Shown piece by piece: positions 7,901 to 64,000 of a DNA stretch of 64,000 nucleotides. A program made the position numbers and the translations under genes. The notes beneath the pieces are model-generated. The model ran no database searches and had not been told where the DNA came from. It saw nothing but the letters and a program-made list of their open reading frames with translations. Numbering within the stretch: the stretch's first letter is position 1; every line of letters begins with the position of its first letter. The stretch comes from Coffea arabica (lineage: Eukaryota > Streptophyta > Magnoliopsida > Gentianales > Rubiaceae). Location: contig NC_092312.1 of assembly GCF_036785885.1 (NCBI RefSeq), positions 11,922,001 to 11,986,000 on the forward strand. The letters are read 5' to 3'.

Positions 7901-8516
7901 ATATTGTGTGGTAGTGGGGGGGGGGGGGGGGGGGGGGGAGTGGGGGGGGTCAGTTATCCGCTTTGTTTTGTGCTGACAATTGACTGAATTCAGATGGGAC
8001 AAATGCGTGTAAACACACGGGGTGGTCCATTGCCAATGTACTTCTTAAGATCAAATACGCTATGATCTCTTAACTCAGTCAAATGTGAACTTGGAATCTC
8101 ATTTTTACGTAGCCTCAACTGTGTGTTTGTTGTCTTATAACTTCTGACAAATTCTCAGGCGTCGAAAACATATTCTTTTGACATTGCATATAGTATCGAA
8201 TAGAAAATGAATGACTACATGCCCAAAAATATATCCGTAGTGCAAGTGTTGGAAATTTTTTTTTTATATAAATAAAAAATTTTGAATTCAGAATCCCTTA
8301 CTTTTAATTTGTTAATTTCTCCGATCCAACCCTCCCTCGTATGAGTGAGAGTGCTGGATCAACTGTTTGCCACCAAGTAAATTCTCGGGGAGTCTGTTGG
8401 TAATTTCATAAACAACCTCAATCTCGTTTTAACTCGCAGCCCGTAAAGTAATTTCGGCCTCGCATCATTGGAGTGCGACTTGCGAAACGATTGCTTAGAC
8501 AGCACGTGAGTGGAAA
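4924..8516. other. Intergenic, low-complexity, no gene seen
   Basis: Holds homopolymer A/T runs (5065, 5247, 6374, 7740), a (TA)n run at 6311-6337 and a run of 23 G at 7916-7938. Small open frames here lack family signatures, paired splice sites or promoter context, and several are made mostly of homopolymer translation. I see no supported gene. Confidence 0.5.
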
Positions 8517-8604
8517 ACACCGGAGAAATTTCTAAAATTATGATAATTTTTAAAAAAATTCTACAAAAGGGGTATTTTGTGTACTGGTTTCTGTTTTTGG
8601 GGTC

Positions 8605-8780
8605 TTCGCATTCTTCAAATGCGAGTTCCTTGAGCTCGCATTTGCTGAATGCGAACTCTCCTTAAATTTTCTACCACCGAAATTTAAAAAAAAATCAAAA
8701 AAAAAACTGACCTCGCATTTCACAAATGCGAGTTATATGTACCTCGCATTTCTGAAATGCGAGGTCATGTACCTCGCATT
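8605..8780. repeat. Left hairpin array of E1 (CTCGCATT / AATGCGAG units)
   Basis: Four hairpins plus a half unit. Each pairs CTCGCATT with AATGCGAG across 3-6 bases, for example CTCGCATTT-CAC-AAATGCGAG. Linkers are short (TTCCTTGAG, TTATATGTAC, GTCATGTAC). Confidence 0.85.
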
Positions 8781-8968
8781 AAACCACAAAACCTCTGTTG
8801 TCCAGTGGGCGCTGCAAGCTGCAATTTTACACTTATGATTATTGCTAGTGATCAAGTATTCACTATGTACCTATGTTGTTTGCTTTCCAACAACAGGATT
8901 CTAGATTTTGCCTAAAAATTTTTCTTTTTGCTTCAGTTGTAATGCCATTTTCTCTTGCTTTATGATTT

Positions 8969-9015
8969 CATTGCAAATTGTAAATGCAATTGTAAATCAT
9001 TTACAATTTGCAATG
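8969..9015. repeat. Perfect 18-bp inverted repeat inside E1
   Basis: Arms 8969-8986 (CATTGCAAATTGTAAATG) and 8998-9015 are exact reverse complements, separated by 11 bases. The structure is unrelated in sequence to the CTCGCATT hairpins. Confidence 0.9.
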
Positions 9016-9555
9016 CAAATTTTACTACTTAAGGCTCTAAATTCATCACAACTGGGAAAAAAAAAAGATCCCATAATATTGGCATCAATAGTTGATAATA
9101 ATTTGGGGGAATAAATCTTAACCAATCTAGAAAGCTTTTTGGTTGGACTTTATCTTGCATCCAATAAATACGAATTCCTAGAAAATTGCATAAAAAAATT
9201 CTAATATTTTTTAAATTACTTTTTAAATTTGTTTATTTGTTAAATTCATTCTTAATAATTTACCATAAACTCTTTGTTGTTAAAAAATATATGTAGCTGA
9301 TGTTGTAAAGTGTATTAATCTAGTAATTCAATAATTTAAGTATCTATAAAGTAATTGAGAATTCGTAGTTACTCAACTACTTATATTAAAAGTAACATAT
9401 TATATACCACATAAAAAAGAAAAGTTAGCAATTATTATTTATAGTGAAATAAAAAATAAGAATGAACAAGAATAGTATTTTATTTTTTTGTTATTGATAC
9501 TACTAATAATTGATTAATCAATTTCTCTAATTTGCTATTATGTAGTGGAAAAGTT

Positions 9556-10300
9556 AAATTTCTTAAATGACATTTATAATACATTTATAAATATTTGTAA
9601 ATAAATGTATTTATGTATTGATAAAAAAATCTGTAAATGTATAAATGTATTATATTATATATAATACGTAATATAAATATATTTATAAATGTGTAATTAA
9701 TATAAATGTATAAATTATAAATGAATATTATATAAATCTATAATTTATAATTTATAAATATATATTAATATTATGTATAAATGTATAATTAATAGTATTT
9801 GTAATTTATAATTTTTATTGTTTAAATATTTATATACATTTATGTGTTTGTAATACATTTATAAATATTTATAAATAAATATATTTATATAATTATATAA
9901 AAATACAAAAATATATTATATTGTATATAATACATAATATAAATATAATATAAATGTATTAATTGTATAAATTAAAAATGAATATTATATAAATGTATAA
10001 ATTAATATATTATAAATATATATTAAATTTATGTATAAATGTATTAATATAATTAATATAAATGTATAAATGTATTATATTATACATAATACATAATATT
10101 AATGTATATTATAAATATACATAAATGTTAATATAAATGTATAATTACATAAATACATATATATATAAATGTATAATATATATTAAATATATGTTAAATA
10201 TATAATATTTAAATAAATGTATAATTACATATTTATATTATACATAATTTATAAAAATATATAATATTTATACAAATATATTATAAATATATAAAAATAT
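9556..10300. repeat. AT-only low-complexity block inside E1
   Basis: Almost pure A/T sequence made of shuffled TATAAATGTATAA-like words in both orientations, with many small palindromes. No open frame. It separates the left hairpin array from the ORF remnant. Confidence 0.85.
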
Positions 10301-10664
10301 AGTTTGTAGGGGTTTTTTGCATTAACCCTTTATGAAATGATTATTACGTGATTATTTATAACTTAGATTTGCTTAGATTATTTATAACTTAGATTTGCTT
10401 ATTTGTTTATTGTAATTTATTATGATTAATATACATACATATATACATTTATTTTTATTTTTGGAAAAAATTTGACAGAGTCTCCCCTTAAAAGTGGCCT
10501 AAACTCCCTGCCAGCAAATCCAAAATAGAAAACATTTAATCTGAACAATAAATCGTACATTGAAATAACAATATATTGACATGTCAACTGTGTTAGACTT
10601 GTAACATATGTCTAGCACATTAGCTACAAAAGATTAATCTAAAAACAAAGATTATAGCCTGTGA

Positions 10665-11257
10665 CTAATTTCCGTGTTCATTTTGCTCCACTCGACTTGT
10701 GTTTTGACCACCACTCAATGCCTCCAATCTGTCTTCGATCGCAGACAATCGCCCCTCGACTGCATGTATTCTCCCATCCAACCGATCAACCACTTCACGC
10801 ATTGCACGCATCTCAGTGATCATAGCTCCAATCATGTCTTGAATCGTTCGCCCATTCGTAGCCTGAGAAGACCCTGCATCAGTTGTGGCCTGCCTGTTTT
10901 CGCCGTCTTCTTGTTGTTCTTCCTCACCCAATTCCGTTTCATCGCGATAGGCAATTCGGTCCATTGTGGCTTGTTCACTATTGCTGATGCAGTGTTGTAC
11001 GATTCGCCTATCAAATTTACACCGAAGTACTCAAAGATACGCGTTAGTGTCCTAGCATAGGGTAGTGCTTTCTTAGCCCCCTTAAACCCTGCAGTTCTTG
11101 ACATGGCACCGAGTATGATTGTGGATATTGGAATCCCAGATACATTGCCTAAACCAGCCTCTAATTTGTCTAGGAAATACACATCCATTACCCGGACTTC
11201 ATTCTTGCTGCTTGAAGCCGGCAGATTTTTTTTTTTTCCAACATTTGATTTGCCCAA
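10665..11257 (-). pseudogene. Frameshifted ORF resembling the C-terminal part of a putative plant transposon protein
   Basis: Minus-strand reading from 11257 gives a segment with MSRTAGF, KKALPYARTLTRIFEYFGVN and LIGES. This order resembles the uncharacterised 'putative plant transposon protein' domain, where a LPYG-LLT-IF-FGV-L-GE pattern is typical; that assignment is from memory. The good frame then shifts near 10950: the overlapping frame ending at 10665 continues with an acidic Glu/Gln/Asp linker and a heptad-rich coiled coil (VDRLDGRIHAVEGRLSAIEDRL). No ATG-initiated N-terminal half is visible upstream, and a poly-T tract at about 11227 interrupts the region. It is therefore 5'-truncated and frameshifted, probably non-functional. 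Its position, reading inward from the right end of E1, suits an element-encoded gene. Confidence 0.55.
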
Positions 11258-12282
11258 AACATTGTTACACCATTAAGGATAACTTAATAACAAGTTGGCA
11301 TAAGAAGATTAAGTAATTAACATGCTTCAATTGCAAAAATGAAAAATGAAAAGGATAGACAAAAATTAATGGATAAATTCGAAAGTATGTAAATAAATTG
11401 TTTTTATTTTAATTTTTTGTAAGTGCATAAACAAATTCTTACTCCATTTCTTTTTCAAAGTACAGACAGCAACATGGGAAAAAATTCAAAGGATAGCATG
11501 ATCTTAAAAGTTATATCAGATTTACTTGCTAGATCTTTAATTGCTAGATCAAAAAAATTTTATTATATAAGGATATTCAAGCACTCCTGCGCATTGTGTG
11601 CACGTAAAAAGATTCCTGTCCTTTATGAATTTTCATAGCATGATTGATCTTTAAGGTATCTGACATGCTATCTTCTTTATTGTCTACATTTATCATTAAA
11701 CCAACCGAAACTTAGGACAGGCCATTCTTGTAATCAACCACAAGAAGAAACTTAGCTCCGATAACAAGCAATGTACAATCCAAATAAATTGCCAACCGAA
11801 ACAACAACAATGTCCAATAAATTGCCAAATCATAAAAGCCACTTCAATTCGTAAAAACAAAAAATCCCAGAAAAAAAATTAAACCTCAGAAAAAAAAATC
11901 TTACCTCTTATGCTGTTTCTGGTGAAAGGAATGGCAAATGGAGAAAGACGGATGCCGGACTTAAATGGAGCTAGCTACCAGAGATGGGTTCCCAAAGGGG
12001 AAGCTCTGCAATGGTAGAGAGCTTCCGATGAAAGCTTCGGACAGGAACAAATGCCGCCTTTCTGGTTTCGTCTGAGGAGAAACGCCGCAACTCTACAAAA
12101 TTGCAGAGCTTCCGAGGAGAAGGTCGACAGATTCCGACGACAAAGCTGTGGCTCTGATTTCCGATGACAAAGCTCAGACCAAGATAATTTTGAGAGTGAG
12201 GAGGCTGCACGGAAAGAGTAAAGGGAGTCACGACTGAAGAGAAATGCGAAATTGGGAAGTCTGATTGATTTCAGATTGAGTA
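11258..12282. other. Non-coding right interior of E1
   Basis: No convincing protein. A minus-strand open frame at 11971-12231 has no recognisable domain and may be leader sequence of the ORF remnant or a captured fragment. The stretch 11980-12180 is more GC-rich than the rest of the element and repeats the word GAGCTTCCGA. Confidence 0.35.
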
Positions 12283-12415
12283 CCTCACATTCATGAAATG
12301 CGAGGTACTAAGCTCGCATTAGGAGAATGCGATATTCTTTTTCTTTTTTCGTGAAAACACTTACCTCGCATTGGTGAAATGCGAGGTACCTGAACTCGCA
12401 TTTCACAAATGCGAA
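12283..12415. repeat. Right hairpin array of E1
   Basis: Four hairpins pairing CCTCGCATT-like and AATGCGAGG-like arms, joined by short linkers such as TACTAAG and TACCTGAA. It mirrors 8605-8780 in inverted orientation and ends with AATGCGAAGA next to the outer TIR segment. Confidence 0.85.
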
Positions 12416-12789
12416 GATCACAAGTCTGGAATCAACTCCACAAATTACCTCCTTTGTAGAATAACTTTTTTTTTTCATCATAATTTAAGAATTTTCTCAA
12501 AACACTGGGAAGATGGATCTTTTATATCCTTGGTCCATGCGGATAACGAGAGAAATTACCACGTTCTTCATTTTTTCCTCTTTGATCTCGTAAACCTATG
12601 AATCTGCAACAATCAGGGATGTGATATATTGTGTCCATTCCATGATGCTAAGTCCATGCTTACAAATTTCTAGGACACGTGAAAGTTGTATTTTGCTGGT
12701 CAAATTACATCAGCCACATATATTAGTCCTTGATATTTTGTCAAGAACGCGAGAAAGCCTCAAATCATCAGCTAGATCTCTCCTCAGAA

Positions 12790-15364: not shown

Positions 15365-16203
15365 ATGGAGCAAAACCCTAGTTCATCTAAAGCTGACAGA
15401 AAAACCATTGAGAGAGACAGAAGAAATCGGATGAAGACCCTTTATTCCAAGCTCACATCTCTTATTCCTCCTCAATCCAGGGTTCCTTCCTAGCCCAGAA
15501 CACGTCTTCATATATAACCTGCATACACCTCACTTCTTCTTCTTTGTTTTTTTTTTCTTTTTTTTTTTTTTTTTTTTGCCCTTTTTCTATGTTTTTATAG
15601 GGGAAGTGTGGCAAAGAAGTAAAAAATCTGGGAGCAAATGTGTTTGGTGTATGTTCATATATCTCGAAATTATGTTAAGTTTTTTTTTTTCCTTCTTTTC
15701 ATGTTTCCAGGAAGCATCATCTCTGCCAGATCAACTTGAGGAAGCCACAAATTACATAAAGAAGATGCAGATCAAGTTGGAGAAGTTGAAGGAGAGAAGA
15801 GATTTTACTAATGGAACAAGATTAAGCAGTGATACAGATACAGCGTCTGCAGGTCTGAGACTGCCACATATTGACATTCAAGAAAGGGGTTCGGCTCTGG
15901 AAGTGGTTCTGATAACTAAGTCGGATTGCCAATTCATGTTCACTGAGACCATCCGTTTGCTCCACGAAGAAGGAGCTGAGGTTGTCAATGCCAGTTTTTC
16001 TGTGCTGGGTGAAACCATTTTCCACACTGTACATTGCAAGGTAACCACTAGCCTGCTGTCTTTTCATGCTTTTTTCTGCCATGTCTAAGAGAAATCTGAA
16101 CTTTTCTTCTCTTTTGTGTCTTTAGATAGGAGAATCAGCACCTTGTTCTGCAGCAGCAAGGATATCCGAGAAGCTAAAGAAGTTTGTTTACGGTGACAAT
16201 TAG
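15365..16203 (+). CDS. bHLH transcription factor, bHLH162-like
   Basis: Three exons, 15365-15481, 15711-16040 and 16126-16203, joined by GT-AG introns with phase-0 junctions, give 174 aa. Residues 11-22 are a basic region (R12, E16, R19, R20), 23-35 helix 1 and about 44-69 helix 2 (LPDQLEEATNYIKKMQIKLE). The rest, from about 88, resembles the ACT-like C-terminus of plant bHLHs. The start MEQNPSSSKADRKTIERDRR matches the style of the bHLH162/118/36 group. The His usual in the HER triad appears to be Arg12, so E-box binding may be atypical. As a nuclear dimerising regulator its targets cannot be read from sequence. The first donor is weak (AGG|GTTCCT), and retention of intron 1 would stop translation after four codons. 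Confidence 0.9.
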
Positions 16204-19481: not shown

Positions 19482-19588
19482 TTCTTATCGTTCTCCTTCT
19501 CTCTTCTTCTTCTTCTTCTTCTTCTTCCACCTCCTCTTTCTCGGTGAAATAGAAACCTTCTCAGTAAGCTCCGATTTGGATCAAAGTC

Positions 19589-21352
19589 ATGGTGGGTTTT
19601 GAAGTCGGAGCGGTTCCGTTCAATCCTGACGGTTGGGGCCCACCCGATTCCTCCACCGCCAATTCCATTTCCGTCCCAAACCACCCATCCAATGTCCCCT
19701 TCGCCCCGTTTTCCCGGTCTGACAAGCTCGGTCGAATCGCAGACTGGACCCGAGCTATTTCCAACCCCAATCGTCCTGGATCTAATCCATCCAACAAAAA
19801 TGTTTCTGACTCTGCCTTTGATTTCACCGGCGACGACTCTTTTGCAACCTTAGCCGCCGACGAGGACTCCTCTTTCCGTTTAGTTGACAATGCCGCCTCG
19901 AAATCCCACCACGGCCACCATCAGAACCGCCCCAAATTCAACCCCAGGTGGCGTTTCAACCCCCACCACCACCGCTCTCAGCTACCCCAGCGCCGCGACG
20001 AAGAGGTCGAAGCCCGAAAACGCGAAGCCGAGAAGGAACGAGCTCGTAGAGACCGTCTTTACAACCTCAATCGCTCTTCCACCAACGCCGGACCTCGCCG
20101 CGAGTCTGCCGTCTTCAAATCGTCCGTCGATATCCAGCCGGAGTGGAATATGCTCGATCAAATCCCCTTCTCCACCTTCTCCAAGCTCTCCTTCTCCGTA
20201 CCCGAGCCGGAAGACCTCCTTGTATGCGGTGGGCTCGAATTTTATGACCGGTCATACGATCGAATCACCCCCAAAAACGAACGCCGTCTGGAGCGCTTCA
20301 AGAATCGCAATTTCTTCAAGGTGACAACCACTGATGACCCTGTAATCCGCCGCCTGGCCAACGAGGATAAAGCTACAGTTTTTGCAACAGATACGATATT
20401 GTCAAGTTTAATGTGCGCTCCCAGGTCAGTTTATTCATGGGATATTGTGATTCAACGCGTTGGGAATAAGTTATTTTTTGATAAGCGTGATGGATCGCAG
20501 TTGGATTTGTTATCCGTGCACGAGACTTCTCAGGAGCCTTTACCTGATGTGAAGGATGATATAAACTCTGCTTATTCATTAAGTGTCGAGGCTGCTTATA
20601 TAAACCAGAACTTTTCGCAGCAGGTTTTGATTAGGGACGGGAATAAGGTTACTTTTGAGGAGCCGAACCCATTTGCAAACGAAGGAGAGGAAGTGGCCTC
20701 GGTGGCTTACAGGTATAGGAGGTGGAAGTTGGATGATGATATGTACTTAGTTGCACGGTGCGAGGTTCAGAGTGTGGTGGAATTGAATAATCAAAGGTCG
20801 TTTTTGACTCTTAATGCGTTGAATGAATTTGATCCTAAGTACTCGGGTGTTGATTGGAGGCAGAAGTTGGAGACTCAGAGGGGTGCTGTCTTGGCCACTG
20901 AATTGAAGAACAATGCCAATAAGTTGGCTAAATGGACTGCTCAGGCGCTTTTGGGTAGTGCTGATATGATGAAATTGGGGTATGTTTCTAGGGTTCATCC
21001 AAGGGATCATTTTAACCATGTGATATTGGCTGTTGTTGGATATAAACCGAGGGAGTTTGCTGCGCAGATTAATTTGAATACCTCTAATATGTGGGGCATT
21101 GTGAAGAGTATCGTGGACTTGTGTATGAAGTTGAATGAAGGGAAGTATGTGCTTGTTAAGGACCCATCCAAGCCACAAGTGAGGATTTACGAGGTCCCAC
21201 CTGATGCATTTGAGAATGACTATGTGGAGGAGCCGTTGCCAGAGGAGGAGCAGGTTCAGCCTCCTGCAGAGGATGCTGAAGGTGGGGAGGCGAATGCTAC
21301 GGCTAATGATGTGGAGGACAAGGATGTCAGTGCTGAACCGGTAGCAGCTTGA
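19589..21352 (+). CDS. TIF3D1: Eukaryotic translation initiation factor 3 subunit D (eIF3d)
   Basis: A single uninterrupted frame of 587 aa starting MVGFEVGAVPFNPDGWGPPD. The length and the conserved blocks fit plant eIF3d (eIF3-zeta): an N-terminal FAPFSRSDKLGRIADWTR block, a DRITPKNERRLERFKNRNFF block and a conserved core through YKPREFAAQINLNTSNMWGI. The end is acidic (EEPLPEEEQ). eIF3d is part of the cytosolic eIF3 complex that brings the 43S pre-initiation complex to mRNA, and in other eukaryotes its core has a cap-binding fold. The coding exon has no intron. Codon use changes visibly: the first ~770 bases favour C-ending codons, whereas after about 20360 T/G-ending codons dominate. The start is the first in-frame ATG after a CTT-rich leader. 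Confidence 0.96.
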   Translation: MVGFEVGAVPFNPDGWGPPDSSTANSISVPNHPSNVPFAPFSRSDKLGRIADWTRAISNPNRPGSNPSNKNVSDSAFDFTGDDSFATLAADEDSSFRLVDNAASKSHHGHHQNRPKFNPRWRFNPHHHRSQLPQRRDEEVEARKREAEKERARRDRLYNLNRSSTNAGPRRESAVFKSSVDIQPEWNMLDQIPFSTFSKLSFSVPEPEDLLVCGGLEFYDRSYDRITPKNERRLERFKNRNFFKVTTTDDPVIRRLANEDKATVFATDTILSSLMCAPRSVYSWDIVIQRVGNKLFFDKRDGSQLDLLSVHETSQEPLPDVKDDINSAYSLSVEAAYINQNFSQQVLIRDGNKVTFEEPNPFANEGEEVASVAYRYRRWKLDDDMYLVARCEVQSVVELNNQRSFLTLNALNEFDPKYSGVDWRQKLETQRGAVLATELKNNANKLAKWTAQALLGSADMMKLGYVSRVHPRDHFNHVILAVVGYKPREFAAQINLNTSNMWGIVKSIVDLCMKLNEGKYVLVKDPSKPQVRIYEVPPDAFENDYVEEPLPEEEQVQPPAEDAEGGEANATANDVEDKDVSAEPVAA

Positions 21353-31698: not shown

Positions 31699-31787
31699 GT
31701 GGTAATAGTGAATTCTTACATTGTGATGAAAAAAAAAATGATTCTACAACGAGGGCGTATTGTGAATGGTTTTCTGGAATTGGGGTC

Positions 31788-31936
31788 TTCGCATTCTCAG
31801 AATGCGAGCTCATTGAGCTCGCATTTTGAGAATGCGAGCTCAGTGAGAGCTCAACATCAAAATGCGAGTTCAGTGAGCTCGCATTCTGAGAATGCGAGTT
31901 CAGTGAGCTCGCATTCTGAGAATGCGAGCTCGCACT
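31788..31936. repeat. Left hairpin array of E2
   Basis: About five units in which GCTCGCATTC and GAATGCGAGC alternate. Linkers are themselves palindromic (GAGCTCATTGAGCTC), so each arm can pair with the neighbour on either side. Confidence 0.85.
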
Positions 31937-32417
31937 AACGTTGAAACCCGCAAGCGGGATTCTGTGTTTTTTCTATTTCAAGGTTAGCTCGCATGCGGGT
32001 TAATGTTATATTTGAGCGCGAGAAGAAAAAATTGGTAATTAGGCTCTTTGGGCATTATAAGTAAATATTTAAATTAATGGCAGTTTTATTACACCAATAT
32101 TATTGTATTATCATTATTATGATTATTGTATTATTTCTTATGCAAATATAACATTTAATTATTTAAATTTGATTTTATTTTTACAATTTATAAAATTTTT
32201 ATCACTTATATAATATTTTTAAAACCCTAATACATCTAAATTTGATTTTATTTTTCAAATTTATAAGATTTTTATTTAAAAAAATGGGATACGGATAAGA
32301 TATCCGGTTGGTTCGATTTGCATAGGTGCATATGAGAATATCCGAATACTCTTTAAACCCGCATGCGTGTTTAAGGAGATTATGGCAACTCTCTGACACA
32401 CTAAATAAAAAAGATAA

Positions 32418-32602
32418 GAGCTCGCATTTGCTTCCTAGAAATAATTCCCTAGCTCTTAAAAAAGGAAAAAAAAAATTGAGAAGAGCTCGCATTCGTGGAA
32501 TGCGAGCTCAATAACCAGAGCTCGCATTCCACGAATGCGAGCTCTTGTAAGCTCGCATTTGTGAAATGCGAGCTCATTGAGCTCGCATTTCACAAATGCG
32601 AA
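32418..32602. repeat. Right hairpin array of E2
   Basis: Starts with an unpaired GAGCTCGCATTTG, then four alternating arms from 32484 to 32602: GAGCTCGCATTCGTGGAATG, its inverted copy, GCTCGCATTTGTGAAATGCG and a final TTTCACAAATGCGAAGA. Confidence 0.85.
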
Positions 32603-32689
32603 GACCCCCTGACGGAAATTAAACCTAAAATCACCCTTTTTGTAGAATTTTTTTAAAATTCATCACAAAGTTGGAAATTTCTCCAACAC

Positions 32690-35587: not shown

Positions 35588-35595
35588 TATAAATA
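35588..35595 (+). promoter_or_regulatory. TATA box of the AGP31-like gene
   Basis: TATAAATA, 86 bp upstream of the ATG at 35674, predicts a short leader. The placement is typical for a strongly expressed plant cell-wall protein gene. Confidence 0.75.
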
Positions 35596-35673
35596 CACTC
35601 CCCAAAGCTTACTAAAACCCACGAACTAAGTCACAAACCACACACCCCCTTCCACTGCCCAGCATTGGCCATC

Positions 35674-37526
35674 ATGGCTTCTTTCTCAGCCAAAATCCCT
35701 GTTCTCATGCAGCTCTCAATGCTTCTGCTCATAAGCTCATCAGTTTTTGCTGACCAGCATGAACATTCCAAATGGCCAGCACATCCACCAGCTGAAGCCC
35801 CTGAACACCACAAGGGTCACCACCACCACCACCACCACCACCCCCCAACCTACCCTCCAGCGAAGCCTCCGGTTCATCCACCGGTTAAGCCTCCAGTGCA
35901 CCCTCCCGTGAAGCCTCCGGTTCATCCACCAGTGTACCCTCCCGTGGAGCCTCCAGTTCATCCACCGGTTAAGCCTCCAGTGCACCCTCCCGTGAAGCCT
36001 CCGGTTCATCCACCAGTGTACCCTCCCGTGAAGCCTCCAGTTCATCCACCGGTTAAGCCTCCAGTACACCCACCGGTTAAGCCTCCAGTGCACCCTCCCG
36101 TGAAGCCTCCGGTTCATCCACCAGTGTACCCTCCCGTGAAGCCTCCAGTTCATCCACCGGTTAAGCCTCCAGTACACCCACCGGTTAAGCCTCCAGTGCA
36201 CCCTCCCGTGAAGCCTCCGGTTCATCCACCAGTGTACCCTCCCGTGAAGCCTCCAGTTCATCCACCGGTTAAGCCTCCAGTGCACCCTCCCGTGAAGCCT
36301 CCAGTACACCCACCAGTGTACCCTCCCGTGAAGCCTCCAGTTCATCCACCGGTTAAGCCTCCAGTGCACCCTCCCGTGAAGCCTCCAGTACACCCACCGG
36401 TTAAGCCTCCAGTGCACCCTCCCGTGAAGCCTCCGGTTCATCCACCAGTATACCCTCCCGTGAAGCCTCCAGTTCATCCACCGGTTAAGCCTCCAGTGCA
36501 CCCTCCCGTGAAGCCTCCAGTACACCCACCGGTTAAGCCTCCAGTGCACCCTCCTGTGAAGCCTCCAGTTAAGCCTCCAGTGTACCCTCCCGTGAAGCCT
36601 CCAGTCCACCCTCCGGTAAGGAAGCTTGTGGCGGTACAAGGAGTTGTTTATTGCAAGACCTGCAGTTATGCTGGTTTTAATCCCAAGGCAGCTGTGCCTC
36701 TCCAGGGTACGTCCATAACGCTACTTTAAACATCCCCTTTTCACAATTTTCCGTTCTTCTTTTAGGTGTTTTTTTCTTATGCTTTTTAGCTTAGGAACTT
36801 GTAGAGGACAGCATTTCGTGAGTACCACAAAGTATTGTTCCAAAAGATACTACTCTCTCGTGCACCCTTTCATTTTGCCCTTTTATTCCAAAACAATCCT
36901 GAGCTACAATGTCATGCACAAGAACTGATTCGTGTTGCTCAAACAAAAGAAGCCGAAACCAAGAAACCTTGAAGAATCGAAATGCTACAATTGGAATAAG
37001 GAAATAGAGTTTGTCACGTGGGCCTGTTGTTAAAAGTCATAAACCTTCATGACACTAAAGTGAGCTAAACGACAAAAATCAAAGAATGTTCGCGCATGGT
37101 TAGGAAAGAAGGAATGGCTAATAATTTGTTTGACCGAGTCTTTTTTACGTTTTTTTTTTTGGTGAATTACTCTGGGACTTCATGATGTATTGTTACTGTG
37201 GAATTGCAGGTGCTGTGGTGAGAGTTAGATGTCATAATACCCGGTTTAAGCCTGTGGTGGCAGAAGGCAAGACAGACAAGAATGGTTACTTCTTGATCGT
37301 GCCAGAGATGGTGACCAGCGTCGCTGCCAGCACTTGTAAGGCGTATCTAGTGAAATCGCCCTCCATGAAGTGCAGCGCTCCGACAAATCTCAATTATGGA
37401 TCGACGGGAGCAGGCTTAATGCCAAATCCAGCTCACAAGCCCAATCCTTTGGCACCAAAATATGCCCTGTACAATGTTGGACCTTTTGCCTTTGGACCAG
37501 CAAAGCTGACCCCATGCCATCGTTGA
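35674..37526 (+). CDS. Non-classical arabinogalactan protein, AGP31-like (proline/histidine-rich, PAC domain)
   Basis: Exon 1 is 35674-36706 and exon 2 is 37210-37526. The phase-1 intron runs from G|GTACGT to TTGCAG, and the product is 449 aa. Residues 1-26 are a signal peptide ending SSVFA. A His run (eight consecutive His) follows, then about 270 residues of PPVHPPVKPP repeats with PPVYPP inserted at intervals. From RKLVAVQG onward is a Cys-rich Ole e 1-like / PAC domain (VYCKTC, RCH, CKAYL, KCSAPT), ending FGPAKLTPCHR. The architecture matches AGP30/AGP31-type extracellular proteins, whose prolines are hydroxylated and glycosylated and which bind wall polysaccharides. The first ATG after the TATA box is used. 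The repeat DNA is highly homogenised (about 84-bp modules), so copy number may vary or be misassembled. Confidence 0.93.
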
Positions 37527-48996: not shown

Positions 48997-50700
48997 GAAA
49001 AAGAGTTTTTTTTTTTTTTTGTTTTTTTGGAAGGATGATGTGTATATATATATATATATATATGTATGTACTTCAAATACCTTGTTTAATGATGTATAGA
49101 GTTTTTTTTTTGGAAGGATGATGTATAGAGCTTACTCTATGCTGAATGATGCCATAAGAAACTTGGGCATGTAAACCAAATGCATGCACTATGAAGCATT
49201 AATTGATTTATTTATTCTTTTGGGTACATTGCATTCGCTAGCCGCAAGAGCACATCCGGTCAAAGAGAACCCTTCATCTTCATAGTATTTGACAAGGCCC
49301 TACATCACAAAGATTTTTGTAACTCATTAAAGAACTTTGACAAAATATTTGAGAAGCAAATGTTCTTTTTTTTTTTTCTTCTTCAATAGGCAACATCCCT
49401 ACTATTTCTCTTTTTTTTTTTTTTTTGCTTATTTAGACTAAAAGAGGAGTGTCAGATTCGAACCCTCCTTTTAGGATTTTTTTTTTAATAATAGAGTGCG
49501 GGATTCGAACTCTCAACCTACTTCCTAAAAAGAAATTTTTAATGTCCAACTTGCTTGAGACAAGTTGGTTGGGAAGCAAATGTTTTTATTCTTTATTTTT
49601 TTGGTTCTTTTATTTGGAACCATGCAGCTAGAGTCAATTAGTCAAATGGAGGTCACCCTCCCAGCTGAAACCTGTAAATGCCACTTGAAAAGTTCACACA
49701 ATTAAATGTCGTAGAGGCGGCTACTTGCTTGCTACGGTACAAAAGTAAAACAAGTTGCGGCTTCCAGTTTCAGAATAGTTCCCAACCTGAATGAATCAGT
49801 AGTTTTCCAGAACACCAAAGACGAATTCTGATTTCTGAGCAAATTGTCAACTTGCAAAGATGAAAAGCAACTACTCCGTTTCAGGTCTTGAAAACTTGAA
49901 ACTAAAAATTCAAAAAAAAAAAAAAGAAAAAGAAAACTGGGATCTAAATAACCAAAACTGTTTTTTTTTTTTTTTTTTTAATTATTGATAAGGGTACAAG
50001 AATTGTGCATGTCCTTTAAGCTGAATGGGGTCCATAAATTATGAAAAAACAATTCTTTGGACACGTGTGCCGTGTACTCCATTCTTCGATATTTTGTGAC
50101 TATCTATATGTTCGATGAGTAACATGTTAATAAATGTGCGTGTGATATCACCTAATATTGACTAAAAAAAAAATCATATGCAATTCCGTCTTTAGCTTGG
50201 GACATATTATTATTCTACGACTATTTTAAGTAGAGTACATAAATAAAACTGCATGCCTATCTTGGTAGAGACATTATTTATTTATTTATTTTTTAATCAT
50301 GTGCTAAGACTACTATTGGTGACAGTACTCTGTGGCAGTAGTCCGTATTAAAATATCTCTTTACTTTAGTCTTCTCCTCCGAAGGCTAGAAACAGTCAGG
50401 AAAAGAGGGCCATGACTCACAATTAACACCAATGATGCTTGCTACTAGATAGATTATTAGTCAGCTATCCAAAAGACAAAAGGGACCCCTTTCGGGTCAA
50501 TGGCACATATTGAAACTTGTTTGACAAATTCCCCTCTCTCTCTCTCTCCCTGGACCCCACTCCCCCCCTTCCCCCAAAATCTGGTCTGAAATTCCAAGCA
50601 TCACCAACACACTGGTAACAGTTGGACCCTAATCCGTCTTCCACCACCACTCTCTCCAACCTCCCCTGACCTCCCAACCCTGTCTGAGTTGCCTTACGCG
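48997..50700. other. Intergenic, upstream of the VQ gene
   Basis: T runs at 49008, 49415 and 49961, a (TA)n run at 49043-49063, and two B-box-like words on opposite sides of a T run (AGATTCGAACCC at 49454, GGATTCGAACTC at 49501) that may be SINE debris. No supported gene. Confidence 0.45.
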
Positions 50701-50856
50701 TCGATGTGCCATTGGCACGTGGCACCACGCGCCATAGAGAGAGATGGCATTGTTTCGTGGAATACTCAAAGTCTTCCCAACAAAAACTTTCTTACCAAAC
50801 TGAAGAAAGTAACAAAGTGCTGCAAAAATGCCAAAGCTCCCCCATTTCAAAGTACC

Positions 50857-51040
50857 CCTCTCTCTCTCTCTCTGCTCCATTCCCCATCTCTCTCTCTCTC
50901 TATATTTATCAAGCTTCATTTTTCAACCCTTTCTTCTTTCTTTTCTTTCTTTCTTTCTTTCTTTCTTTCTTTCAAGTTTTCAACCTTCACTCTCTCTCTC
51001 TCTTTCTCTCTCACACACACAAACACGCAGAACACACACA
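50857..51040 (+). promoter_or_regulatory. Pyrimidine-rich leader of the VQ gene
   Basis: CT dinucleotide runs at 50861-50874, 50887-50900 and 50991-51012 and a CTTT tetranucleotide run at about 50938-50973 precede the ATG. TATATTTAT at 50901 is a possible TATA box. Such CT-rich leaders are common in plant regulatory genes; length polymorphism is expected. Confidence 0.5.
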
Positions 51041-51057
51041 CACGCAGCAATTCAACA

Positions 51058-51831
51058 ATGGAGAACTCAACAAGAGGGCTTCAAGAAAACCAGAACCCAT
51101 GTTTGCTTCCGTCCCCGAAGAGCTATAGCACCAATAGTTCCAGCAGCAGCACCAGCAGCAATGGACTTCACCACCATCACCACCACGGCCAGCTCCCTCC
51201 GCCACCCACCCCACCACCTCAGGTTCCCGTGCCCATCACCAGATCCGAACCAAACAACCCGTACCCGACTACCTTCGTCCAAGCTGATACCTCCTCCTTC
51301 AAACAAGTCGTCCAAATGCTCACCGGATCTTCCGAGACGGCCAAATTGGCATCCGGATCTTCCCGACCCGAACCCGGATCAGCCCCCGTGAAGAACCACG
51401 CCATCCCGCCCATCAAGACCGGGCCCAAGAAGGAGAAGTCAGCCTCCCGGCTGTATGAACGGAGGAACAGTCTGAAGAACTTCAAGCTCAGCCCTCTGGC
51501 ACCGGGATTGGTGAGCAGGCCCCAATTTTCCTCCAATTCGCCCCGACCCGTCACACCGGAGATCTTGTCGCCGAGTCTGCTTGATATTACTTCTCTAGTG
51601 CTCAGCCCGGTTACACCGCTGATACCCGACCCGTTCAACAGATCTCCTCATAGTGGGTCGAGTACTAATAGTAATTTGGACGTCGAGGCTGAGGACAAAG
51701 CTATAGCTCAAAAGGGATTTTATTTCCACCCATCACCCTCAAATACTCCTAGGGATTCGGAGCCCCGACTATTACCCCTATTTCCGGTGACTTCACCGAG
51801 AGTCTCAGGTTCTTCAAGTTCTGATTCTTAA
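51058..51831 (+). CDS. VQ motif-containing protein, VQ4 / MVQ-like
   Basis: Single-exon, 257 aa, starting MENSTRGLQENQNP. Residues 38-43 are a His run, followed by a Pro-rich stretch. The VQ motif FKQVVQMLTG is at 81-90 and matches FxxxVQxLTG. Basic KKEKSASRLYERRNSLKNFK and many Ser-Pro / Thr-Pro sites (NSPRPVTPEILSPS, LSPVTP, RSPHS, FHPSPSNTP) follow, and the end is GFYFHPSP then Ser-rich. VQ proteins bind WRKY factors, and this subgroup is phosphorylated by MPK3/MPK6 in Arabidopsis. By that analogy this is a nuclear cofactor in defence or stress transcription. The ATG at 51058 is chosen because an N-terminal extension of the open frame to 50689 only translates the CT-rich leader. Confidence 0.92.
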   Translation: MENSTRGLQENQNPCLLPSPKSYSTNSSSSSTSSNGLHHHHHHGQLPPPPTPPPQVPVPITRSEPNNPYPTTFVQADTSSFKQVVQMLTGSSETAKLASGSSRPEPGSAPVKNHAIPPIKTGPKKEKSASRLYERRNSLKNFKLSPLAPGLVSRPQFSSNSPRPVTPEILSPSLLDITSLVLSPVTPLIPDPFNRSPHSGSSTNSNLDVEAEDKAIAQKGFYFHPSPSNTPRDSEPRLLPLFPVTSPRVSGSSSSDS

Positions 51832-61333: not shown

Positions 61334-61708
61334 TCACCGAGTGTTCCTTACACAATTTGTAATTCTGGTGCACCCTCCAGAGTAAGGATTGATCTTTTGA
61401 TGCGAACCACAGTTATAGTAAGACGAACCCCGTCGGCTGCATGGGATATTACCTCTACGCAGGGCATCATAACTAATGTAACGAGTTTGAGCCAGTACCC
61501 GCCGGCTAGCCTCAGAATCAAGCATCATTTCTTCAGCTTCATCGATGCAATCGCCGACTCGACCATTGCATGTAGCTATGCCATGAGAAGGGATGACGGA
61601 ATCAATGTCGAACAGGGCTTCTTTGTAATCAGCAAATGACGATTCCGCTGTCAGGAAAACCCTGGCCAGCAAGAGGATCAGAAGGCAATGCAGATATCCC
61701 ATTCCCAT
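61334..61708 (-). CDS. Rapid alkalinization factor (RALF) preproprotein, RALF1/33-like
   Basis: Single-exon, 124 aa. Residues 1 to about 25 are a signal peptide (LHCLLILLLARVFLTAESSFA). The propeptide contains CNGRVGDC (47-54) and an acidic EAEEMMLDSE stretch, then the dibasic site RRVL at 69-72, the S1P-type cleavage motif RRxL. The mature peptide, about 50 residues, has YISY at 77-80 (FERONIA-family receptor contact motif), GNIPCSRRG, and four cysteines at 90, 100, 113 and 119 in the RALF spacing. Secreted RALFs bind CrRLK1L receptors and LRX / LLG partners, raising apoplastic pH and restraining growth. Two ATGs are possible (residues 1 and 3); both keep the signal peptide. Confidence 0.95.
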   Translation of the reverse strand: MGMGYLHCLLILLLARVFLTAESSFADYKEALFDIDSVIPSHGIATCNGRVGDCIDEAEEMMLDSEASRRVLAQTRYISYDALRRGNIPCSRRGSSYYNCGSHQKINPYSGGCTRITNCVRNTR

Positions 61709-64000
61709 GTGGTTTTTTTCTTTTGAAAATTTTGGAAGGATGAATTGATGGAATGTGAAGATTTTGTGTTGGTCAGGTTTGCGTTATCTGTTTTGAGTGT
61801 TATTGTGAATAGAGAAGCATGAGAGAAAATTATATGGAAAGTGGAAACTGGATAATGTAAGCTTGGATGAGGTTAGCACATGCATGCATGTGTCTCTTAA
61901 GGGTTAGCGTTTTGGAAAATTGGCCTGTTTTTGCTCCTATTTCTTCTCTAGTTAACGGAGGTGGTGCTGGTGGTGGTTGTTGCTGTTCTATCTGTGCTGT
62001 CGAGGGGGGGGGGGGGGGGGGGGAAAGAAGCTGAATTTGCATTCACTACTGCCATTTGCCACCAGTAGGATATTGGCTTTTTTTTTTTGGGCCAAAAAGT
62101 AGTACCATTTGGTCGCCCACCTGTATATGTTTTCTTTTTATTGCTCATATTAGGACTCTGACTTCTTTTTTTATGGTTGGTCTGCGGTCCTTGTTGGACA
62201 CTATTTGAGTTCTCATGGAGTCCAACAAGTACTTGGGTAGGATAGGGTAGATAGAGATGGTTAGGTCGTGTTCTGCTTTGTGAGTGATTATCCAAAACTC
62301 ACAATAGCCCATACAAGGTAATGACAATCAGGGAGCTGCTTCACCTTGAATGGCAACGGGTAATAAAACCCGATATTCGTGAATATCCAACCAGACAGTT
62401 GATCTGATCATACAATTGATTCACTCTTCATTAGAATTTGGTATGGAAGAGAGATTATTAATGGACAACCTGATAGGTTTTGATGCGAGGTTCAAAAAAT
62501 TTAATGCTCATACCCGATGTATAAGTTCACATATATAATATGAATAAAATATATACATACACACAATTTCATGGTTGGAAGTTAGAAAAGGAATATATAT
62601 ATATATATAGAAATTGTGATCAAAACCATTTTTTATGGGATTAATAGACCTTGATTGTTGCTTCTTGGCATGCTAGGAAAAGGATCTATTGACTTTCTAA
62701 TTCAGTAAAAAAAAAAAATCGATTTAATGCAGTTTTGGTTTGTCTTATTAGTGCAAGACTCCTCTTGCAATTAAGTTGCCCAAAATTTTCTGAAACTTCC
62801 ACAGATTAGTGTAAAAGAGGATTTCGTGCAGTGTGATTACTATAAAAGAGGGTTTAGAGCAATATGATTACTAAAAATCAATCTTTAAATCCGGAACTTC
62901 TTATATACTATCTCCAAATGACTCGTCAATACCGCTTCAGTCTGCAACACAATTTATGTTATCCGGCTTCAATATCAAGTTGTTCCTTTCTCAAGTCTTT
63001 GCAAGATAAAGTCTTTCTCTGTTTTTTCTCACTCTCTCGTCCTTTCTCTGTCTAGGGTGCACTTTTCCCCTTTCTCTTACCCTTTTTTCTCTCTAACCTT
63101 TGTTCGTTGGCCTGTAACTGTACCTTTAAACCAATGCTAGTAAATGTTGACTTGTACCATAATTATTCACCATTAATTAGGCGGGCATAATCAATAATGG
63201 TCTCAATCAGACAATTAAAAACTTGCCACCAGAAATGGTTAAGAGTATTTATGTGTGATATGCGCTTCCACAACATCTCCCACTCAGAAAATAAAAAACC
63301 GAATCCATAAGAAATTAAATCCCCCTATACTCCTTTACCATGTGGCTTCTTCTAGTAGTGAAGAAGCTAAAAAGAGTTTAGTGGATTCAAGAGGGCACCC
63401 TCGGACCCCAGACACGGAGTCGTCAGTGACAATCGTTCAAAATAGTGTAATACTTTTTAAATAAGTTATAATTACATCTTGCCTACTCGTACATATTTAT
63501 AATAGAAGTATAATATTCTATCACTATTCATGTGATCAGCTCCATGTATAATAATTACATATGTATACATATGTTATGAAATTTTACAAATAATTCACGT
63601 AAAGTTACGAGGTATTTAAAAAGCATTATATCATTTCGAAAACGATTATCACTGAAAACCCTCCGTGCCCGAGTACCTTCCTCTAATGGTAAGATTTATG
63701 ATTTTTAATTGATAAACCCTCCGTGCCCAGGATGGAAGAAACCTGATCAATCTTCTCAGGCGAGTGGAGTAGCTGTCTACATGACTACATCATTGAATGT
63801 TCTCAAGAGGGCAGTAGTCCACCTCTACATGATGGGGATGACACGAGCTGGATATTTATCCGTGGACTAGTTCACAAACCGCTACATTTATTGTCAGTTG
63901 TGAGTTGGTCCAAATTATCGACCTAATCCCTGGTGGCCCAGGTGCCTGCATTATCCTTTTGAGTTCGATCGGGTTAACTCTCTACTGCTTGTAGGTCCGC
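61709..64000. other. RALF upstream region and right edge
   Basis: CCATATAAT-like sequence on the minus strand at about 61829-61838 could be a TATA box. A G run is at 62004-62023 and a (TA)n run at about 62597-62610. AACCCTCCGTGCCC occurs at about 63657 and 63715 flanking a short insert. Small frames at 62864 and 63255 lack features. The last 250 bases are more GC-balanced but show no coding signal that I can identify. Confidence 0.4.

What the first reader, a model, noticed from the sequence alone, without database searches (positions are those of the whole stretch)
8517..12505. A transposon family whose terminal inverted repeats are arrays of CTCGCATT / AATGCGAG hairpins
E1 and E2 (31699-32689) share outer end sequence (ATTCTACAA, TCTTCGCATT) at all four ends and then, instead of a simple TIR, an array of short hairpins. 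This is a structure inside a structure: the long inverted repeat pairs across the element, while each unit also pairs locally. I do not know a named family with this layout. The arrays may be transposase-binding sites, cruciform-forming ends or siRNA sources.
Basis: partly seen in the sequence, partly recalled or inferred. Interest (0 to 1): 0.8.

Follow-up and report, generated by a model that had tools for sequence, protein, structure and literature searches.

The report
Coffee transposons with palindrome-array ends
Two degenerate DNA transposons in a coffee-plant genome, probably of the Mutator kind, have ends built from near-identical short palindromes set in mirror-image pairs, most simply read as protein-binding arrays; this is an unusual version of a known end design, not a new class of mobile element.

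Summary
Two elements, E1 (8523-12498) and E2 (about 31709-32684), share tip sequence, and each of their four ends carries four TCGCATT-N5-AATGCGA units: 16 in all, 15 exact, against 0.01 exact expected. E1 has a Mutator-sized 9-bp target duplication, 8 of 9 matching; E2 has none. No transposase was recognised. The host is a Coffea species.

The nesting needs correcting. The variable 5-nt cores do not pair across the element (11 of 40, p 0.77) but are reverse complements within adjacent hairpin pairs (30 of 40, p 3e-5): each end is two mirror-image dimers. Arms are 223/224 identical while tips are 60-72% identical, and the core is always 5 nt: a protein-binding palindrome fits better than a hairpin needed for shape.

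Best reading: non-autonomous Mutator-like, Foldback-type elements whose end arrays are repeated binding sites, with local palindromy made or mended by template switching. The kind is known (Muta1, Tm1); the layout is a new variant. Genome-wide copies could not be searched.

The parts
8514..8522 (.). left target-site duplication of E1, AAAACACCG
   Evidence: 8 of 9 equal to 12499-12507
8523..12498 (.). element E1, 3976 bp
   Evidence: tips, arrays and duplication
8523..8605 (+). E1 left tip (starts GAGAAATTTC)
   Evidence: 60-72% identity among the four tips
8606..8654 (+). E1 left, outer hairpin dimer (cores CTTCA, TGCTG; 3 of 5 complementary)
8713..8762 (+). E1 left, inner hairpin dimer (cores TCACA, TCTGA; 4 of 5)
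8773..8780 (+). E1 left, unpaired extra arm CTCGCATT
10698..11257 (-). broken ORF fragment resembling Transposase_32 (PF20167), continuing in a second frame
   Evidence: E 0.01, below the Pfam cut-off; relatives P0046, P0047
12243..12250 (-). E1 right, unpaired extra arm
12285..12332 (+). E1 right, inner hairpin dimer (cores CATGA, AGGAG; only 1 of 5 complementary; one arm TCACATT)
12366..12414 (+). E1 right, outer hairpin dimer (cores GGTGA, TCACA; 4 of 5)
12416..12498 (-). E1 right tip (reverse complement starts GAGAAAATTC)
12499..12507 (.). right target-site duplication of E1, AAAACACTG
31709..32684 (.). element E2, about 976 bp; left boundary uncertain, no duplication found
31709..31788 (+). 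E2 left tip
31789..31837 (+). E2 left, outer hairpin dimer (cores CTCAG, TTGAG; 4 of 5)
31861..31868 (-). E2 left, single arm of a decayed middle unit
31879..31927 (+). E2 left, inner hairpin dimer (cores CTGAG, CTGAG; 4 of 5)
32421..32428 (+). E2 right, unpaired extra arm CTCGCATT
32487..32540 (+). E2 right, inner hairpin dimer (cores CGTGG, CCACG; 5 of 5), folds as a 29-bp stem with flanks
32553..32601 (+). E2 right, outer hairpin dimer (cores TGTGA, TCACA; 5 of 5), folds as a 23-bp stem
32603..32684 (-). E2 right tip (reverse complement starts GGAGAAATTTC)

Best explanation
E1 and E2 are old, non-autonomous Mutator-like elements of one Coffea family with Foldback-type ends. The constant 19-bp palindrome TCGCATT-N5-AATGCGA is a site for a protein binding as a dimer, most likely the family's transposase supplied by an autonomous copy elsewhere. 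Four sites per end would raise end recognition, as repeated sites do in other long-ended transposons. The mirror-image dimers were made, and are mended, by template switching between inverted halves during DNA synthesis, so the variable cores stay complementary within a dimer while the left and right ends drift apart. Shown here: arrays, constant arms, fixed core length, dimer complementarity, one 8/9 duplication. Inferred: Mutator membership, protein binding, which protein, template switching, mobility of the family.
For: Same plan at 4 of 4 ends. 8/9 duplication of 9 bp at E1. Arms 223 of 224 letters constant between tips of 60-72% identity. Core length 5 in 15 of 15 exact units when 1-12 was allowed. 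Dimer cores complementary 30 of 40, p 3e-5, against 11 of 40 across the element; dimer pairing above 500 of 500 shuffles on 3 of 5 measures. Precedents: Muta1 and Tm1, Mutator-type elements with repeat-built ends (passages and sections); Galileo end repeats bind their transposase domain in vitro (passages); template switching makes and mends stems (abstract).
Against: E2 has no duplication. No transposase in either element and no autonomous copy known. One of 8 dimers matches at only 1 of 5. Randomising orientation only, p is 0.020; per element p is 0.037 and 0.029. 2 of 5 dimer measures are reached by 63 and 110 of 500 shuffles. At single-hairpin level covariation is weak (288 of 500 shuffles reach the double-changed-pair count; the -2 slide scores higher). 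Galileo belongs to the P superfamily, so it is an analogy.
Confidence: 0.55

Rival explanations
1. Same kind of element, but the arrays are sites for an element-encoded anti-silencing protein, as VANC proteins read short repeated motifs in Arabidopsis VANDAL elements, and not mainly for the transposase.
For: VANC target motifs are short, dense, in non-coding parts and spread by repeat formation (passages of PMC5735166). A CpG sits in 31 of 32 arms and CpG observed/expected in the arrays is 1.06-1.46 against 0.70 for the window.
Against: [quoted passage not shown] No VANC-like gene seen; an autonomous copy is not known. E2 interior also has a high CpG ratio (1.4) without an array.
Confidence: 0.15
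2. The arrays matter for shape: cruciforms in DNA, or RNA hairpins that feed small RNAs.
For: Five array stretches fold as single-stranded DNA far better than shuffles (z -7.4 to -20.3); E2 right gives perfect 29- and 23-bp stems; dimer cores keep complementarity.
Against: A shape role would tolerate other loop lengths and paired changes in the core stem; core length is 5 in 15 of 15 and 6 of 7 core-stem pairs never vary. Single-hairpin stems are short (7-13 bp). No small-RNA data here.
Confidence: 0.12
3. Neutral by-product: inverted duplication and slippage expanded a chance palindrome, and sharing between copies keeps arms alike without function.
For: Variable distance between dimers (start-to-start 31-77 nt) and an extra or decayed arm at each end; E2 left is one large palindrome with 58-nt arms at 91%.
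Against: Arms stay the same between ends and between elements while the adjacent tips differ by 28-40% and the cores, inside the same units, differ freely between ends (4-6 of 20 in 5 of 6 end pairs).
Confidence: 0.13

Closest known systems
Muta1, Aedes aegypti Mutator-like element called a type 2 Foldback (PMC5225508, passages seen)
   Same: Long inverted ends made of repeated short units inside a terminal motif, 8-9 bp duplications, many non-autonomous relatives with unrelated interiors
   Different: Muta1 has 9 copies of a 12-bp repeat described as tandem with 3-4 bp spacers; here a 19-bp palindrome in inverted dimers, about 30 nt apart; animal, with a known transposase
Tm1, root-knot nematode Mutator/Foldback family (PMC3169594, sections 5 and 11 part 1 and passages seen)
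   Same: Composite inverted ends with repeated short units, 9-bp duplications, some copies without duplications
   Different: 13-15 bp tandem motif, not palindromic dimers; one copy encodes a Phantom-type transposase
Plant MULEs with multiple long TIRs (PMC3310237, abstract, section 3 part 1 and section 4.3 seen)
   Same: Plant Mutator-like elements with repeated end sequence, thought to help recognition
   Different: Whole TIRs of at least 100 bp are duplicated, not 19-bp units
Galileo (P superfamily, Foldback-like; PMC3688188, passages seen)
   Same: Repeat-built long ends with several sites for the element's own DNA-binding domain, shown in vitro
   Different: Other superfamily, other site
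VANDAL elements of Arabidopsis (PMC5735166, passages seen)
   Same: Dense short motifs in non-coding parts, read by an element protein
   Different: Motifs in one orientation, 9 or 8 bp, not at palindromic ends
Alex-1 MITE of Coffea (PMC3180848, part 1 of 3 seen)
   Same: Non-autonomous DNA element in coffee, able to form secondary structure
   Different: 178 bp, 18-bp TIRs, 3-bp duplication: another family
FARE foldback elements of Arabidopsis (not held; known here only as cited in PMC3169594)
   Same: Plant foldback-type family with a MULE-domain transposase, as cited
   Different: End sequence not compared

Membership tests
Mutator-like elements (MULE) | target duplication of about 9 bp (8-11) | tested here: inconclusive
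   E1 8 of 9; E2 none
Mutator-like elements (MULE) | long terminal inverted repeats (for TIR-MULEs) | tested here: met
   tips of about 80 bp at 71% (E1) and 60% (E2) left to right, plus arrays
Mutator-like elements (MULE) | MULE transposase in the family's autonomous copy | not testable with these tools
   no such domain in 14 ORFs of E1 and E2; genome not searchable
Foldback-type elements (structural class) | long inverted ends made of internal short repeats | tested here: met
   4 units at each of 4 ends
Foldback-type elements (structural class) | the two ends complement each other along the repeats | tested here: inconclusive
   97-nt arms at 73% in E1, 59-nt at 83% in E2, but the cores do not match across the element (11 of 40)
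VANDAL elements | VANC gene and its motif | not testable with these tools
   no autonomous copy; motif differs from YAGTATTAY and AGTTGTCC/AC
CACTA elements | tips CACTA and 3-bp duplication (recalled) | tested here: not met
   tips GAGAAA in 3 of 4, E1 duplication 9 bp
Alex MITE family | 178 bp, 3-bp duplication, 18-bp TIRs | tested here: not met
   3976 and about 976 bp, 9-bp duplication in E1

The most novel reading that the evidence does not exclude
A plant Mutator-type family whose ends are self-mending palindromic operators: a dimeric element protein reads a 19-bp CpG-containing palindrome, while template switching inside mirror-image dimers keeps each pair complementary, so each end evolves as its own unit independently of the opposite end, and left-right matching is kept only in the tips and in the letters that are read.
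Probability: 0.25. Interest if true: 0.6.

Novelty: new variant of a known kind. Interest (0 to 1): 0.42.

Why it matters
Whether the repeats in Foldback and Phantom-type ends act as binding sites was stated to be untested in a 2013 paper (PMC3688188, passage; later work not checked). Here constant arms, free cores and fixed spacing separate recognition from shape within one element, so the question becomes testable with a few short DNA probes. The dimers also look like a natural case of template-switch homogenisation at a transposon end. If ordinary, it is one more non-autonomous family in coffee.

Tried and rejected
Genome-wide copies: one and the same request to the genome search (own genome, query 8517-8800) was sent eight times and never answered.

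Copies in other collections: CTCGCATT-N4-8-AATGCGAG gave 21 viral stretches, each with one palindromic site, about what I would expect by chance in a collection of that size (own rough estimate); the longer end pattern gave 0 there and a shorter one gave 2 single matches in prokaryote assemblies. No stretch held more than one site of the pattern searched. These loci were not read further.

Translated end sequences as a protein query: 18 candidates, none at E 10 or better.

Known coffee elements: Alex-1 rejected. Sequences of the other elements named in PMC2656508 (Gerard, Anis, Jose, Arnaud, Deless and others; passages) and of the MuDR-like transcripts in PMC3823963 (passages) were not available, so identity with one of them is not excluded. 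A text search for the octamers gave 61 papers, of which the 20 listed look unrelated by title and abstract start.

Transposase_32 fragment in E1 as the family's transposase: not accepted; below the Pfam cut-off, only the C-terminal part, and broken into two frames. It may be capture, nesting or decay.

The Drosophila Foldback4 paper PMC2955051 (passages) and the VANC/MuTAnT and other listings added nothing decisive. PF20167 literature: 6 papers listed, none useful by title. Rfam: no match in the window. E1 and E2 interiors: no blastn match at E 0.1.
Full report
What is there. The window is plant DNA. A RALF-type peptide gene at 61334-61783 is 99% identical to a Coffea eugenioides protein over 68% of its length (and to an unnamed ENA protein over 98%), with Cinchona (75%) and Oldenlandia (58%) next, so the host is most likely a Coffea species; this rests on one gene. 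Two elements share tip sequence: E1 at 8523-12498 and E2 at about 31709-32684. The four tips align over about 80 bp at 60-72% identity; three of four start GAGAAA, E2 left does not. E1 is flanked by AAAACACCG and AAAACACTG, 8 of 9 equal; random 9-mer pairs from the window reach 8 of 9 at a rate of 0.00038. A 10-bp reading (9 of 10) is possible by shifting one base, and a scan of offsets also returns equal scores inside the tips themselves, which are inverted repeats; the 9-bp reading is preferred because both tips then start GAGAAA. E2 shows no duplication: the best within 15 bp is 6 of 8.

The arrays. Inside each tip lie four units TCGCATT-N5-AATGCGA, 16 in all, 15 exact and one with a CpG-to-CpA change. 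With the core length free from 1 to 12, 15 exact units were found, all with five bases. Each end also has one extra or decayed arm: 8773, 12243, 31861, 32421. Unit spacing within pairs is 30 nt in five of eight, otherwise 29, 31 and 35; between pairs it is 31, 52, 60 and 77 (positions).

Three levels of symmetry, tested apart. Level one, the unit: of the seven arm pairs six never vary in 16 sequences. Covariation at this level is weak: the number of double-changed pairs is reached by 288 of 500 shuffles and of pair types by 141; cells paired, double-changed cells and the score are reached by 17, 12 and 9; and the version slid by -2 has a higher score, 0.172 against 0.154. Level two, the dimer: units 1-2 and 3-4 of each end have reverse-complementary cores, 30 of 40 letters against a permuted mean of 13.7, p 3e-5. 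The eight dimers score 3, 4, 1, 4, 4, 4, 5 and 5 of 5. Randomising orientation alone gives p 0.020; E1 alone p 0.037, E2 alone p 0.029. On the alignment of 8 dimers 92.9% of cells pair with 13 double-changed cells, and these two and the score exceed all 500 shuffles, while double-changed pairs and pair types are reached by 63 and 110; shuffles do not allow for relatedness. Level three, across the element: 11 of 40, p 0.77. So the left-right inverted repeat survives in tips and arms, not in cores. Units 2 and 3 do not match (8 of 20, p 0.39); units 1 and 4 do so weakly (12 of 20, p 0.058), and E2 left as a whole is a palindrome with 58-nt arms at 91%.

Ends of the same side. Cores of the two right ends agree at 13 of 20 (p 0.020, one of six comparisons, not corrected); the other five at 4-6 of 20. 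This hints that the right ends descend from one right end.

Folding as single-stranded DNA, five stretches: z from -7.4 to -20.3, none of 200 shuffles as good in any. Five of the eight dimers fold as one dimer stem (two in E1 left, the outer one in E1 right, two in E2 right; the E1 left stretches were cut to one dimer each). The inner E1 right dimer folds as two single hairpins, and E2 left folds as one long stem over its first units plus a single hairpin at 31909.

Coding content. Fourteen ORFs of E1 and E2, not every ORF, were scanned against Pfam (4, 10). One gives a transposon-type hint: 10832-11257 on the minus strand resembles the C-terminal part of PF20167 (E 0.01, below the cut-off); 10665-10964 gives only sub-threshold coiled-coil matches; the other twelve gave nothing. 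P0046, a relative at 74% over 84 residues, does reach the PF20167 cut-off. P0047 matches at 78% and then continues in another frame to 10698 at 53%, so the fragment in E1 is broken. No MULE transposase was found. E1 and E2 interiors share no similarity, as expected of non-autonomous relatives that share only ends.

How it probably works. The arms keep letters and spacing where the surrounding tip has drifted by 28-40%. At the mean tip identity of 0.665, 56 equal arm letters between two ends would have a chance of about 1e-10 if positions were independent; shared history and arm duplication make this too strict, but the contrast is large. A shape-only role would allow other loop lengths and paired changes in the core stem; neither is seen. 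Hence reading by a protein on a two-fold symmetric site is the better account. The cores match within dimers, which binding does not ask for; template switching between inverted halves gives it as a by-product, a process reported to create and mend stems (PMC8794818, abstract and opening seen). Independent inverted duplication of each dimer would look similar. Which protein reads the sites is inferred. A transposase is the first guess because Galileo end repeats bind theirs in vitro (PMC3688188, passages) and Muta1 and Tm1 are Mutator-type elements with repeat-built ends. An anti-silencing protein as in VANDALs is the second (PMC5735166, passages); the CpG in 31 of 32 arms makes it worth testing.

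Comparison. The structural class, Foldback-type ends on a Mutator-type element, is known. The specific layout, a 19-bp palindrome with free core in mirror-image dimers, was not seen in the listings or in what was read of the ten papers opened. These searches cover one open-access library; repeat databases and coffee repeat annotations were not available, so the family may already be catalogued.

Limits. Two copies, no genome search, no autonomous member, no expression data. That the family moves rests on one imperfect duplication and on the shared end plan.

Noticed in passing
9601-10301: Very AT-rich, degenerate tandem array inside E1 (periods near 8, 30, 63 and 99 reported by TRF).
   Followed up: no
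8966-9018: Imperfect palindrome of about 53 bp (85%) near the left end of E1's interior, found as a self-match in blastn.
   Followed up: no
31941-31961 and 32352-32372: A second pair of GC-containing motifs inside E2, CCCGCAAGCGGG and CCCGCATGCG, related to each other at 81%.
   Followed up: no
8460-8478: A hairpin like the array unit with 2 mismatches, 45 bp outside E1; may be chance or a relic.
   Followed up: no
35593-36729: ORF with long PPVHPPVKPPV-type repeats, a proline-rich cell-wall-like protein by look (not searched).
   Followed up: no
15435-16088, 19568-21352, 50590-51831: ORFs that look like part of a bHLH factor, eIF3 subunit d and a VQ-motif protein (recognised from memory from the list, not searched); the elements lie in a gene-rich stretch.
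   Followed up: no
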